Of a DNA stretch of 37,474 nucleotides, positions 14,303-29,517 are shown piece after piece. The DNA is taken from assembly GCA_938028625.1 (NCBI GenBank), contig CALIZB010000016.1, forward strand, positions 1-37,474, in the 5' to 3' direction. Under the pieces are notes generated by a model. The model searched no databases, had not been told where the DNA came from, and saw only the letters and a program-made list of their open reading frames with translations. The first letter of the stretch is position 1, and each line of letters starts with the position of its first letter. This DNA comes from an uncultured Bacteroidia bacterium (lineage in GTDB: Bacteria > Bacteroidota > Bacteroidia > JANWVE01). The translations under genes and the position numbers were made by a program.

Positions 14303-16012
14303 ATGAGTGCAGTAAAATTTCCTTATGGAATAAGTAACATAGAAAAACTTTCTTCACAGGGTTTTGTTTTTGTGGACAAAACCTGCTTTATAGAAAAATT
14401 AGAGAAAAACACTGAAAGTTATGTTTCTTACCTTCGCCCGCGTAAGTTTGGCAAAAGTCTTTGGCTGTCCATTCTGGAATACTATTATGATGTTAAACAG
14501 GAAAGTAAATTTAATAAATTGTTTGGCAAATACTATATTGGCAAATATCCTACGCCTGCCCGAAACAGCTACCGTATTCTCAAATTTGATTTTAGTGGCA
14601 TAGATACCAGCACTCCCGAAAGCACAAAGCAAGGATTTAATTTATCTGTACAAGGTGCTTTACAAGAGTTCAATAATAAATATAACATTTTTTCTCAACT
14701 GGGATATATAGAAAACAAAGATGCCGAGGAAATGATGTTTTTATTTTTCCGGAATTACCCCAAAGACCTTCCTATCTACCTGCTTTTTGATGAATATGAC
14801 CATTTTACGAATGATATTCTTTACCGAAATAAACATGAATTTATAGAAACGGTATCCAAACAGGGTTATGTACGCAAATTTTATGAAGTGATTAAAACGG
14901 CTACGCAACAAGGTATTGCAGACAGAGTATTTATTACAGGCGTTTCTCCCGTTACGCTTGATGGCTTAACCAGTGGATTTAACATTCTTACTAATCTTAC
15001 CCACAACCCTGAGTACGAAACTATGATGGGTTTTACGGAAGACGAGGTACGCGAATTATTAAAATTAGTTTTACGGGATAAATCTCGTGAAAATGAAATT
15101 ATGAACGAAATGCGAGAATGGTACAATGGATATAAGTTTTGTGAGTCATCTGAGCAGAGTATCTACAATACAGATATGGTTTTGTATTATCTCAAAGAAT
15201 TTAAGGATACTCAACAATCCCCTAAACGACTGTTGGACATTAACATTGCCCCTGATTACGGAAAAATCAAACAGATGTTTAGAGTATTAGATGTACATAA
15301 ACATTACGAAGTACTGACAGAAATACTGCAAAAAGGATACATTGATACAGAATTAGTGAGTATATTTAACTTTGACAGAGGATTTACGCAGACAGATTTT
15401 ATCAATTTTTTGGCATATCTTGGCAATTTAACCATAGACAGAGCTATATTAGAGAATATAGTACGGTTCAGGATACCCAACCGTGTGATTGAAATACTGT
15501 ATTGGCAGTATTATGGGGAAGTTTTACAAGAACAGGCAGATTTAAGCATTGATGTGTTAGATGCTATTCAGCCTGCTATATTAGAGATGGCATTACAGGG
15601 TAATCATGTACCTTTTTTTAACCTTGTTGAAAACCTGCTTAAAGAACTTTCCAACCGTGATTTTTCAAGTAAATTCAATGAAAAATATATCAAATTAGCG
15701 ATATTGGCGTATATTTCACAGATAAGCGTATTTGACATACGGAGCGAAAACGAACTCAAAGGTGGGGGTTATCCTGATATTATGCTGTTAAGAAAATCTA
15801 CTACGCACATAGAGCATCACGAGTACGTAATAGAACTCAAATATCTGAAAAAAGAACAAGAAAATGCGTTAGAAAAAACAAAACAAGAAGCCAAAGAACA
15901 AATTTTGAACTATTATCATCAAGATAAAACCTTACAAAACAAGCCATATTTGCATTTGCTTATAGTAGTTGCGGTAAAAGATGTGTTGTACATAGAGGAG
16001 GTGGTAAAATAA
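14303..16012 (+). CDS. AAA-ATPase-like / PD-(D/E)XK nuclease-family protein
   Basis: A 569-residue protein of the two-domain family abundant in Bacteroidota and some other anaerobes. The N-terminal AAA-ATPase-like domain starts with KFPYGISNIEKL and has a Walker A-like loop RPRKFGKSLWL (Gly50, Lys51, Ser52) and a Walker B-like LLFDEYDHF (Asp163, Glu164). The C-terminal domain has a PD-(D/E)XK nuclease core, with Asp492 in GGGYPDIML and Glu511-x-Lys513 in YVIELKYL. Both active sites look intact. The biological role of the family is unknown; it often occurs in many copies per genome, and mobile or conflict roles have been suggested. The start is fixed by the -7 box immediately upstream. No neighbour is clearly linked. 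Confidence 0.88.
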   Translation: MSAVKFPYGISNIEKLSSQGFVFVDKTCFIEKLEKNTESYVSYLRPRKFGKSLWLSILEYYYDVKQESKFNKLFGKYYIGKYPTPARNSYRILKFDFSGIDTSTPESTKQGFNLSVQGALQEFNNKYNIFSQLGYIENKDAEEMMFLFFRNYPKDLPIYLLFDEYDHFTNDILYRNKHEFIETVSKQGYVRKFYEVIKTATQQGIADRVFITGVSPVTLDGLTSGFNILTNLTHNPEYETMMGFTEDEVRELLKLVLRDKSRENEIMNEMREWYNGYKFCESSEQSIYNTDMVLYYLKEFKDTQQSPKRLLDINIAPDYGKIKQMFRVLDVHKHYEVLTEILQKGYIDTELVSIFNFDRGFTQTDFINFLAYLGNLTIDRAILENIVRFRIPNRVIEILYWQYYGEVLQEQADLSIDVLDAIQPAILEMALQGNHVPFFNLVENLLKELSNRDFSSKFNEKYIKLAILAYISQISVFDIRSENELKGGGYPDIMLLRKSTTHIEHHEYVIELKYLKKEQENALEKTKQEAKEQILNYYHQDKTLQNKPYLHLLIVVAVKDVLYIEEVVK

Positions 16013-19951: not shown

Positions 19952-20827
19952 ATGATACCAACTGTAAATTATCATTTGCTTAAAGCCTGCAATTATGCTT
20001 GCAAGTACTGTTATGCGACCTTTGACGATGTTAAAGGAAAAGGTATATCCAAAGAAGAGCAAAAGAGTCTTATTATTCTTTTGGCACAAAGTAAACTATT
20101 CCGAAAAATCAATTTTGCAGGGGGAGAGCCGCTTTTAGTGCCTTATATTCATGAACTTATTCAGTTAGCCAAACAACAAGGACTAACTACAAGTATTGTT
20201 ACTAATGCCAGTTTGCTTACAAAAGAATGGATACTCAACATTCACCCGTATTTAGATATTCTAACTCTTAGCATAGACAGTGCGAGTAAAACAAGCAATT
20301 TACTTATTGGCAGAAAAGACCATCAGGGTAATACTGTAAATACAGAAAAACTTATTGTCATAGCTCAACTATGCCATAATTTGAGAATAAACCTTAAAAT
20401 CAATACAGTTGTTAATAGATTTAACAAAAACGAAACGCTTACTCCACTCATAAATGCCTTACAACCTTTTCGTTGGAAAGTATTAGAAGCTACCAAAGTA
20501 GAAGGTCAAAACGATAAACAGTATTCAGAAATATGTGCAGAAAAAACAGATTTTGAAAGCTTTTGTATTCGTAACCAGTCAGGGCTTTTGGAAAATATAA
20601 AATTTGTGCCTGAACCTGCGGATATCATTCAAGGCTCTTATCTCATGGTAGACCTATTGGGCAGGTTTTACGACAGTAGTTCAGGAAAACATTCGTACTC
20701 TTCAAAAATTTTAGAATCAGGGGTAGAAAAAGCATTATCAGAAATCAATGTAAATATACACAAATTCCATCTACGAGAAGGCGATTATGAAGTTAATAGA
20801 GAATTCCTAATTTTGAATAAGCAATAA
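19952..20827 (+). CDS. Prokaryotic viperin (pVip), radical SAM antiviral nucleotide-modifying enzyme
   Basis: A 291-residue radical SAM enzyme that I recognise as a viperin homologue. Animal viperin and characterised pVips turn CTP, GTP or UTP into 3'-deoxy-3',4'-didehydro nucleotides that terminate viral RNA chains. The [4Fe-4S]/SAM motif is Cys13-x3-Cys17-x2-Cys20 (KACNYACKYCYATF), followed by INFAGGEP (53-60). Viperin-specific blocks come in order: YLDILTLSIDS (100-110), LLIGR (117-121), LKINTVVNRFN (148-158), PFRWKVLEATKVEGQN (172-187), then VPEPAD, GSYLMVDLLGRF and ILESGVEKAL, and a C-terminal HLREGDYEV matching the RGGKY end of viperin. These blocks separate it from MoaA and other SPASM-type relatives. 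The ATG at 19952 is the only start, as an in-frame stop lies 15 bases upstream. The preferred nucleotide cannot be read from the sequence. Confidence 0.93.
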   Translation: MIPTVNYHLLKACNYACKYCYATFDDVKGKGISKEEQKSLIILLAQSKLFRKINFAGGEPLLVPYIHELIQLAKQQGLTTSIVTNASLLTKEWILNIHPYLDILTLSIDSASKTSNLLIGRKDHQGNTVNTEKLIVIAQLCHNLRINLKINTVVNRFNKNETLTPLINALQPFRWKVLEATKVEGQNDKQYSEICAEKTDFESFCIRNQSGLLENIKFVPEPADIIQGSYLMVDLLGRFYDSSSGKHSYSSKILESGVEKALSEINVNIHKFHLREGDYEVNREFLILNKQ

Positions 20828-20846: not shown

Positions 20847-21255
20847 GTGAAACCTTTTTGTACTTTTTTGATTATATTTGTTCTTATGGTATTGTTTTAT
20901 ATACCTGTACAGGCGTCTTCTGTGCCTTTCTCTCCAAAAAGTGCTTCTGAACAAAGTTTTACCCCAAATCTCTATTTCTATAAAAAACAAGGTAAAAAAA
21001 CTGAAAGTGCTTAAAAAAGTAAAAAAAGTGCACTCTAATCAGACGGCGGGGATACTCATTTTTATTATTGGGTGTATGATAACTTTGGTAGGCACAGGAA
21101 TTATTATTGTAGCTATTACAGATGCTGTTCTTACCATTGGGCTGGGCGTTCTGGTGCTGGGGTTTGTAGTGATGTGTATAGGAGATATTATTGGTAATCT
21201 GCGTTTAATGAACCTTATTCTTAACCTGTGTGACTGTCTTTCTGTTTTATTATAG
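20847..21255 (+). pseudogene. Small exported membrane protein, split by a +1 frame change at an A7 tract
   Basis: Two reading frames look like halves of one protein. Frame one starts at GTG 20847 with a signal peptide (MKPFCTFLIIFVLMVLFYIP, then VQASS), a linker and KKQGKK, then stops at 21012-21014. The other frame continues across the same place with LKVLKKVKKVHSNQTAG, two hydrophobic helices (ILIFIIGCMITLVGTGIIIV and VLTIGLGVLVLGFVVMCIG) and ends at 21255. Removing one A from the seven at 20994-21000 joins the halves into about 135 residues: signal peptide, basic linker, two membrane helices. That order is common in small Bacteroidota membrane proteins. It may be a real frameshift, phase variation, transcript slippage or a sequencing error. 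It begins 19 bases after viperin; function unknown. Confidence 0.6.
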
Positions 21256-27188: not shown

Positions 27189-28667
27189 ATGAAAACAGCT
27201 GTCATTATTGGTTCAGGTCTGGGAGGGCTTTCTACCGCACTCCGCCTTACACAAAAAGGATACAGAGTAAAAGTTATTGAAAAAAATGATACTGTTGGAG
27301 GAAGGCTGAATATTTTACAGGACAAAGGATACACTTTTGATGTAGGTCCTTCTTTTTACTCTATGTCTTACGAGTTTGACGAACTTTTTGCAAGTGCAGG
27401 GGTAAAAAATCCGTTACAGTTGGAAAAACTCAATCCTGTGTACCAAGTGTATTTCAGACATCGCAAAGAACCCTTCAAAATTTACACAGATTTAGAACAA
27501 TTAGCACAGGAATTTGCTTTTGAACCTAATTTCAAACAAAAAATAGAAAAATATCTTGCCAAAGCAGGTCAGTTTTTTCATGATACGGAGAATGTTATTG
27601 TAAAAAAGAACTTCAATTCTGTTCTTCACTACCTTATGGGTATGACCAAAGTGCCCCTAAAACACACTCCTTACCTGTTCAAATCTATGTGGAAAGTATT
27701 AGACAAAACCTTTGAACACGAAGAAACCAAAGTCATTTTCTCATTAGTAGCTTTTTTTCTGGGTTCTACTCCGTTTGAAACCCCTTCTATTTATTCTTTG
27801 CTTAACTATACAGAACTCAAACATGACGGCTACTGGGCAGTAAAAGGTGGCATGTACAGCATTGTCAAGGAAATACGAAAAATACTGGAACAAAGAGGTG
27901 TAGAGTTTGTTACTAACACAGAAATTGTAAGTTATGAAAATGGTACACCCGATAAAGTAACCGCTTTCATAGACCAAAATGGAAATAAATATACCGCTGA
28001 CGTATTTGTTGTGAACAGTGATGCCGCTTCATTTAGAGGAAAAGTACTCAAAAGACAAAAGTTTAATGAACAAAAACTAGACAATTTAGACTGGACTTTA
28101 TCACCCTTTACCATTTATCTTGGGGTAAGAAAAAAGCTCAAAAATCTTATTCATCACAACTATTTTCTTGGGGATAACTTCAAAGAATATGCAAATAAAA
28201 TATTCAAATCCACTATTGCACCGGAAAAACCCTATTACTATGTAAACGTAACTTCCAAGTCAGACCCAAGTACTGCACCCGAAGGTTGTGAGAATGTATT
28301 TATTTTATGTCCTGTACCTGATTTACGCTTTAAAAAAGACTGGGCGGATACAGAAACTTTTGCCAAAAACATTATTCAGGACTTGCAGGAACGTATAGGG
28401 GATAACATTTTGGACAACATTGATACTATGCATATTATGAACCCTATAGATTGGCAAAATAAATTCAATTTATACAGAGGTTCAGGATTAGGTCTATCAC
28501 ATGGTATGCGTCAGGTAGGCGGTTTCAGACCTAAAAACTATGACGAAGAGTACAAAAACGTCTTTTATGTAGGGGCTTCCACTACACCAGGCACAGGGCT
28601 GCCTATGGTAGTTATCGGTTCAAAATTAGTAACAGAACGTATAGAACAATCCAATGTAAATGTATAA
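27189..28667 (+). CDS. crtI: Phytoene desaturase (CrtI-type carotenoid desaturase)
   Basis: A 492-residue FAD-dependent membrane-associated enzyme that introduces double bonds into phytoene to make neurosporene or lycopene. The N-terminal FAD motif is VIIGSGLGGLSTALRL, with VIEKNDTVGGRL, and GYTFDVGPSFYSM follows as in CrtI. HDGYWAVKGGMYSIVKEI and the C-terminal bacterial-type desaturase signature NVFYVGASTTPGTGLPMVVI close the fold. It stands 19 bases ahead of crtB in the same operon. Related saturases and ketolases share the fold, but the neighbourhood with phytoene synthase supports the desaturase. Confidence 0.95.
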   Translation: MKTAVIIGSGLGGLSTALRLTQKGYRVKVIEKNDTVGGRLNILQDKGYTFDVGPSFYSMSYEFDELFASAGVKNPLQLEKLNPVYQVYFRHRKEPFKIYTDLEQLAQEFAFEPNFKQKIEKYLAKAGQFFHDTENVIVKKNFNSVLHYLMGMTKVPLKHTPYLFKSMWKVLDKTFEHEETKVIFSLVAFFLGSTPFETPSIYSLLNYTELKHDGYWAVKGGMYSIVKEIRKILEQRGVEFVTNTEIVSYENGTPDKVTAFIDQNGNKYTADVFVVNSDAASFRGKVLKRQKFNEQKLDNLDWTLSPFTIYLGVRKKLKNLIHHNYFLGDNFKEYANKIFKSTIAPEKPYYYVNVTSKSDPSTAPEGCENVFILCPVPDLRFKKDWADTETFAKNIIQDLQERIGDNILDNIDTMHIMNPIDWQNKFNLYRGSGLGLSHGMRQVGGFRPKNYDEEYKNVFYVGASTTPGTGLPMVVIGSKLVTERIEQSNVNV

Positions 28668-28686
28668 CCTTTAATACAAAAAAAGT

Positions 28687-29517
28687 ATGAACGCACTTGA
28701 ATTGTATTCCGAATGTTCAGCCAAAATAGCAAAACTACTCACCCGTGAGTATTCTACCTCATTCAGCAAAGCTATTCATTTATTGGACAGGTCTTTGCAC
28801 CGTTCTATCTACGGCATTTATGGCTTTGTACGTTTGGCTGATGAAATTGTAGATACGTTTTATCACCAGAACCAAGAAGTTCTTTTCCGAGAGTTTTGCC
28901 AAGAAGTAGAAAAAGCATTGAACTTAAAATTTTCATTAAATCCTATTTTACATGCTTTTCAAGAAGTTGTACATACCTACAAAATTCCTAAAGAATACAT
29001 AGATGCCTTTTTATACAGCATGGAGTTAGATTTAACAAAGAGAGAATATACAGACGAAGAAGCATCAGTGTATATTTACGGTTCTGCGGAAGTAGTAGGT
29101 TTAATGTGTTTGTGCGTATTTGTTCCTGATGAAAAGGAACGAACAAACCTAATTCCTTATGCCAAAAAATTAGGTTCAGCTTTTCAGAAAGTTAATTTTT
29201 TACGGGATATACAGTCTGATTTGGAAGTGCGAAAGCGGATATATATTCCAAAGGAATTATTGGAGAACGGAAAAATCACCGAAAAAACAAAAAAACAATA
29301 TGAAGCGATTTTAGAGCAAGAATTCAAAGAAGCACAAAAAGGCATAAACCTGCTTCCCAAAACCTGCCGAAAAGGTGTACAGATTGCCCACACGTATTTT
29401 TATGCCCTATTCAAGAAAATACAGAGTAAAAGCGTAGAAGAAGTACTACAAAAGCGCATTCGTATAGATAATTTTCATAAATTCAGACTTTTAGCACGAG
29501 CATCGCTGATGTGGTAA
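28687..29517 (+). CDS. crtB: Phytoene synthase
   Basis: A 276-residue prenyltransferase of the squalene/phytoene synthase family that joins two geranylgeranyl diphosphates into phytoene. Both Mg-binding Asp motifs are intact: Asp52-Glu-x-x-Asp56 in RLADEIVDTF and Asp174-x3-Asp178 in NFLRDIQSD. YSTSFSKAIHLL near the N-terminus and EYTDEEASVYIYGSAEVVG in the middle are typical. It follows crtI by 19 bases and ends at a strong terminator, so crtI-crtB is a two-gene carotenoid unit. No cyclase, hydroxylase or ketolase gene is in the window, so the final pigment cannot be told. Confidence 0.95.
   Translation: MNALELYSECSAKIAKLLTREYSTSFSKAIHLLDRSLHRSIYGIYGFVRLADEIVDTFYHQNQEVLFREFCQEVEKALNLKFSLNPILHAFQEVVHTYKIPKEYIDAFLYSMELDLTKREYTDEEASVYIYGSAEVVGLMCLCVFVPDEKERTNLIPYAKKLGSAFQKVNFLRDIQSDLEVRKRIYIPKELLENGKITEKTKKQYEAILEQEFKEAQKGINLLPKTCRKGVQIAHTYFYALFKKIQSKSVEEVLQKRIRIDNFHKFRLLARASLMW

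What the first reader, a model, noticed from the sequence alone, without database searches (positions are those of the whole stretch)
19952..20827. A prokaryotic viperin (pVip) in a Bacteroidota chromosome
Seen: Cys13-x3-Cys17-x2-Cys20, INFAGGEP, YLDILTLSIDS, LKINTVVNRFN, PFRWKVLEATKVEGQN and a C-terminal HLREGDYEV, in the same order and spacing as animal viperin. Known: viperins make 3'-deoxy-3',4'-didehydro nucleotides that stop viral RNA polymerases, and pVips protect bacteria from phages. Inference: this is an anti-phage gene outside any recognisable defence island, between yicC-gmk and a ferredoxin. The CYATF variant next to the cluster and the nucleotide preference are worth placing in the pVip tree.
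Basis: partly seen in the sequence, partly recalled or inferred. Interest (0 to 1): 0.85.

Follow-up and report, generated by a model that had tools for sequence, protein, structure and literature searches.

The report
Ordinary bacterial viperin in Bacteroidia
This is a normal bacterial relative of the animal antiviral enzyme viperin, very probably making chain-terminating nucleotides that protect the cell from phages; it is a new member of a well-described family, not a new kind of system.

Summary
The ORF at 19952-20827 (+), 291 aa, is a genuine prokaryotic viperin. It scores 289.5 bits against NCBIfam viperin NF038283 (cut-off 180) and only 60 bits against MoaA (cut-off 284). PADLOC calls it pVip, best by the class not associated with kinases. 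An AlphaFold2 model (mean pLDDT 95.9) matches CTP-bound mouse viperin at TM 0.90, ahead of every other radical SAM enzyme. In a tree it lies inside the viperins, apart from MoaA-like outgroups. Invariant residues are kept, among them Cys13/17/20, GGEP, Asn151, Lys176 and Tyr230. 'CYATF' is ordinary: 17 of 57 aligned viperins have that Tyr. The gene stands alone, with no partner kinase and no other defence gene found on the 37-kb contig; the nearby gmk is housekeeping. Two of three genomes of the genus carry the gene, at different chromosomal places, which fits a mobile defence gene. Enzyme activity, nucleotide preference and phage defence are inferred, not shown. The more interesting side result is a clade of viperins on uncultivated phage contigs.

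The parts
19952..20827 (+). viperin (pVip; SAM-dependent nucleotide dehydratase), 291 aa
   Evidence: NF038283 289.5 bits (cut-off 180), PADLOC pVip 269 bits, TM 0.90 to mouse viperin with CTP
19988..20011 (+). CxxxCxxC [4Fe-4S] cluster motif, residues 13-20
   Evidence: the three Cys are invariant in 57 of 57 aligned viperins
20120..20131 (+). GGEP SAM-binding motif, residues 57-60
   Evidence: 57 of 57 at G57, E59, P60 and 56 of 57 at G58
20639..20641 (+). Tyr230, probably the conserved active-site tyrosine of viperins (assigned by alignment)
   Evidence: invariant in 57 of 57 aligned viperins; a conserved active-site Tyr is described in PMC8124187 and PMC9642334
20768..20791 (+). C-terminal tail HLREGDYE, residues 273-280 (usual form R-G-G-x-Y)
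   Evidence: Arg275 in 56 of 57; Glu at 276 in 3 of 57 including the window, Gly in 41

Best explanation
The gene encodes a stand-alone prokaryotic viperin. Its [4Fe-4S] cluster, held by Cys13/17/20, cleaves S-adenosylmethionine. The resulting 5'-deoxyadenosyl radical removes the 4' hydrogen of a bound ribonucleoside triphosphate, which then loses water to give a 3'-deoxy-3',4'-didehydro (ddh) nucleotide. Phage RNA polymerases that incorporate it stop, so infection is limited. Shown here: family membership, predicted fold, conserved residues, and presence or absence within the genus. Inferred from characterised viperins: the reaction and the antiphage effect. Not predictable here: whether CTP, UTP or GTP is used. 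It acts without a dedicated nucleotide kinase nearby.
For: Family models: NF038283 289.5 bits over residues 4-276, PADLOC pVip 269 bits. The best-matching solved proteins are all viperins. Model pLDDT 95.9; best fold match mouse viperin with CTP and SAH (TM 0.87 and 0.90 for its two chains), all of the top 30 are viperins, and the next radical SAM enzyme is more than five orders of magnitude weaker in E-value. Tree: all 79 viperins including this one separate from MoaA-like rows with 100/100 support. Of the residues kept in at least 50 of 57 viperins, the window departs only at 86 (Gly to Ala) and 235 (Pro to Leu). Same-genus orthologue 59% identical at another chromosomal place, none found in the third species. 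Some Bacteroidota relatives lie near type I restriction-modification genes (L051, L057). Activity and phage protection of bacterial and archaeal viperins: PMC9642334, PMC11291487.
Against: No activity data. No defence neighbours on the contig. GC and codon usage are within the range of neighbouring genes, so recent transfer is not visible. The tail has R-E-G instead of R-G-G, and residue 86 is Ala instead of Gly. The enzyme might act in metabolism rather than defence, as PMC9642334 cautions for the family.
Confidence: 0.88

Rival explanations
1. A different radical SAM enzyme (MoaA, NirJ/AhbC or a SPASM maturase) that only resembles viperin.
For: It hits MoaA and NirJ2 models, but weakly (60 and 56 bits).
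Against: Those scores are far below their cut-offs of 284 and 500, while the viperin equivalog is well above its own. Fold match to viperin with CTP at TM 0.90 against at most 0.68 for SkfB and other maturases. Tree.
Confidence: 0.01
2. A viperin that has left defence and makes a ddh nucleotide for metabolism or regulation.
For: It lies among housekeeping genes without other defence genes. It belongs to a small lineage on a fairly long branch. PMC9642334 argues that the family has roles beyond defence.
Against: Patchy presence in the genus and different chromosomal places are expected of defence genes, not of core metabolism. There is no conserved gene partner.
Confidence: 0.07
3. A decaying, inactive viperin.
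For: Residues 86 (Ala), 235 (Leu) and 276 (Glu) depart from the family.
Against: The frame is intact and the residues invariant across the family are all present; other viperins share Ala86 and Glu276 (3 of 57 each, window included).
Confidence: 0.04

Closest known systems
Prokaryotic viperins: PADLOC pVip 'not associated with kinases' (PDLC02903), NCBIfam NF038283
   Same: Full-length match above the curated cut-off, same conserved residues, same single-domain form
   Different: A sparsely sampled lineage: nearest relative 59% identical, the next 44% or less; R-E-G instead of R-G-G in the tail
Animal viperin / RSAD2 (mouse, 6q2p) and fungal viperin-like enzymes (T. virens, 9dfw, 9dfn)
   Same: Fold (TM 0.84-0.90 for the nucleotide-bound or most complete entries) and conserved residues, 33-36% identity
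   Different: No N-terminal extension; CYATF instead of CFHTA after the cluster cysteines
Kinase-fused pVips of other Bacteroidota (for example L003, L061, L068)
   Same: Homologous viperin domain, 39-41% identical
   Different: They are 461-476 aa with a second domain that reads as a P-loop nucleotide kinase; this one has no such domain, and a search of its genome with that domain gave only a 40-residue match
Viperins on uncultivated phage contigs (L131-L139, L143)
   Same: 37-42% identity; mostly the same CYATF
   Different: A separate clade (100/99), carried by phages

Membership tests
Prokaryotic viperin (pVip / SAND) | Match to the curated viperin equivalog above its cut-off | tested here: met
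   289.5 bits against cut-off 180
Prokaryotic viperin (pVip / SAND) | CxxxCxxC radical SAM motif and GGEP | tested here: met
   C13, C17, C20 and residues 57-60
Prokaryotic viperin (pVip / SAND) | Viperin fold including the C-terminal part that closes over the nucleotide | tested here: met
   TM 0.90 to mouse viperin with CTP over 300 alignment columns; the ligand itself was not modelled
Prokaryotic viperin (pVip / SAND) | Family-wide conserved residues, among them the active-site tyrosine | tested here: met
   all 13 invariant positions kept, with Tyr230, Asn151, Lys176; Lys149 56 of 57; individual roles assigned by alignment only
Prokaryotic viperin (pVip / SAND) | C-terminal R-G-G-x-Y tail | tested here: inconclusive
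   R-E-G-D-Y; Gly at this place in 41 of 57, Glu in 3
Prokaryotic viperin (pVip / SAND) | Placement with viperins and not with MoaA/NirJ | tested here: met
   100/100 split from two MoaA-like rows
Prokaryotic viperin (pVip / SAND) | Produces a ddh nucleotide | not testable with these tools
   needs enzyme assay or LC-MS
Prokaryotic viperin (pVip / SAND) | Protects against phage | not testable with these tools
   needs plaque assays
pVip-kinase subtype | Fused or adjacent nucleotide kinase | tested here: not met
   single domain; the nearby gmk belongs to a yicC-gmk pair that persists without viperin in G001 and G002
MoaA | MoaA equivalog above its cut-off | tested here: not met
   60.2 bits against 284

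The most novel reading that the evidence does not exclude
The small lineage of this genus (window, G002 and, more distantly, G049) makes a ddh nucleotide, or a mixture, not yet reported for viperins, and needs no partner kinase.
Probability: 0.07. Interest if true: 0.5.

Novelty: new member of a known kind. Interest (0 to 1): 0.22.

Why it matters
It adds one more bacterial lineage to the viperins and shows gain, loss or movement of the gene within a genus. By itself it changes little, since current annotation models already name it. The related phage-borne clade noticed on the way would matter more if confirmed: phages carrying a defence enzyme, perhaps used against rival phages or against host transcription.

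Tried and rejected
MoaA/NirJ/SPASM identity: rejected. Functional link to gmk: rejected, because yicC-gmk stays together in G001 and G002 without viperin. A special CYATF class: rejected, because Tyr at 21 is scattered over several lineages. Kinship with eukaryotic viperins: the first tree joined two fungal sequences to the window's group (99/90), but with Asgard viperins added and long branches removed this grouping lost support, so I treat it as unstable. Recent foreign origin from composition: GC 0.337 against 0.347 for the window, codon fit at the low end but within the range of neighbours. An empty site at the window's own locus could not be shown, because gene order around yicC is not kept between the species; at the G002 locus the TatD-tcdA pair is kept in G001 without viperin. 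Viperin in cultured phage records: none. The primary papers (Bernheim 2021, Lachowicz 2021, Fenwick 2020, Shomar 2024) are not held, so placement against individually assayed pVips and a nucleotide prediction could not be made.

Full report
Observation. The window is one complete contig, G000:C16, of a 2.9-Mb genome in 170 contigs. The genome belongs to class Bacteroidia: two genomes given as 'same class' have contigs of the same lengths as records titled Bacteroidia and Flavobacteriales (G003 with L110, G039 with L056). This is an inference from matching lengths.

What it is. NCBIfam's viperin equivalog NF038283 matches residues 4-276 at 289.5 bits against a cut-off of 180. Animal viperin TIGR04278 follows at 164 bits, MoaA at 60 and NirJ2 at 56, the last three far below their own cut-offs. 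PADLOC's three pVip models match, the one for viperins not associated with kinases best. The best-matching solved proteins by sequence are all viperins. An AlphaFold2 model made with 57 viperins has mean pLDDT 95.9 and pTM 0.92. Its closest solved structure is mouse viperin with CTP bound (TM 0.87 and 0.90 for the two chains), followed by fungal viperin-like enzymes with CTP; SkfB and other maturases come much later, at TM up to 0.68. Confidence is high to about residue 280.

Active site. In an alignment of 57 viperins from bacteria, archaea and viral contigs the window keeps all 13 invariant positions: Cys13, Cys17, Cys20, Gly57, Glu59, Pro60, Asn85, Ser107, Gly120, Asn151, Trp175, Lys176, Tyr230. 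The His of the N-x-H motif (residue 8) is also kept; it aligns with the site changed in the F40H variant of the second T. virens enzyme, as the sequences of 9dfu and 9dfn show. Departures from strongly conserved positions are Gly86 to Ala, Pro235 to Leu and, in the tail, R-G-G to R-E-G. The same-genus orthologue has Gly86 and R-G-G, so those two changes are probably recent in this species; a few other viperins share them. Tyr after the third Cys, the 'CYATF variant', occurs in 17 of 57 sequences from several lineages.

Phylogeny. With two MoaA-like outgroups, all 79 viperins form one side of a branch with 100/100 support. The window pairs with its congener G002 (100/99); G049 (same class) is the next relative, and in the first tree spirochaete and Bacteroidales sequences also join. 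A second tree, with eight further Asgard viperins and without long branches, keeps window + G002 + G049 (100/94) and does not support the link to fungal viperins seen in the first.

Context. None of 30 other proteins of the contig gives a convincing PADLOC match; weak hits of gmk, FAD oxidoreductases and a VWA protein are incidental. The gene stands alone between the divergent yicC-gmk pair and a small ORF followed by a ferredoxin. yicC-gmk is kept in both congeners without viperin beside it, so the nearness of a nucleotide kinase gene is not meaningful. G002 carries its viperin between an rmlA-like nucleotidyltransferase gene and a ThiF-family (tcdA-like) gene. G001 keeps the TatD-tcdA pair but has no viperin there, nor anywhere in the genome above the cut-off (G001 is 91% complete, so absence is likely but not certain). 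Of 60 related genomes, G000 included, six have a match over the cut-off. This patchy pattern suits a defence gene. A search with the second domain of a fused relative gave only a 40-residue match in the genome. Some Bacteroidota relatives lie near type I restriction-modification genes: HsdM and a Schlafen-type protein at L051, HsdS and HsdR at L057.

Mechanism. From established viperin biochemistry (PMC9642334; phage protection by viperins in PMC11291487) the expected action is SAM-dependent dehydration of a nucleoside triphosphate to its 3'-deoxy-3',4'-didehydro form, and chain termination by phage RNA polymerase. None of this was measured here. Bacterial viperins make ddhCTP, ddhUTP or ddhGTP (PMC10732462), and no nucleotide can be assigned to this one.

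Side result. A scan of viral contigs found a group of viperins (L131-L139, L143), 37-42% identical to the window, at 282-293 bits against NF038283 for the three tested, forming one clade with 100/99 support. Terminase matches lie on four of these ten records, two of them strong (118 and 82 bits). Phage-type genes surround them: thymidylate synthase, helicase and, in L137, a DNA polymerase whose start overlaps the end of the viperin gene. No cultured phage record has a viperin at the threshold used. I found no report of such phage viperins in the open library, but the main pVip papers were not available, so I make no claim of first discovery.

Verdict. It is a new member of a known family, rightly described as outside a recognisable defence island, and not surprising in itself.

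Noticed in passing
L131-L139, L143 (IMG/VR contigs of 16-115 kb): A well-supported clade of full-length viperins on uncultivated phage contigs, nearly all with CxxxCxxCYATF; terminase matches on four of ten records (two strong), and in L137 the viperin gene overlaps a phage DNA polymerase gene. Absent from 50,697 cultured phage records. Possibly a phage-borne weapon against rival phages.
   Followed up: partly
L140; L141, L142, L144: Further viperins of other lineages on contigs classed as viral (267 and 254 bits for the two tested); no terminase found, so their viral nature is unsure.
   Followed up: partly
L009 / L046 (G003 C6): A viperin reading frame cut short at 165 residues (matches the model only to position 151), next to a helicase-like gene: apparently a broken gene.
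   Followed up: no
window 14303-16012: AAA-ATPase_like plus PDDEXK_9 nuclease protein (PF09820, PF08011); role unclear. A homologue lies on the same G001 contig as the ferredoxin gene (L043).
   Followed up: partly
window 20878-21255: Small ORF with a TTG start and a hydrophobic C-terminal half between viperin and ferredoxin; no family match.
   Followed up: no
L166 2290-3061, L042 near 877-1080, L043 276-584: GC-rich repeat-like stretches between genes in the congeners G001 and G002, giving odd ORFs; one 24-base core tested is absent from the window.
   Followed up: partly
window 27189-29517: FAD oxidoreductase and squalene/phytoene synthase genes side by side, looking like a carotenoid pair.
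   Followed up: no
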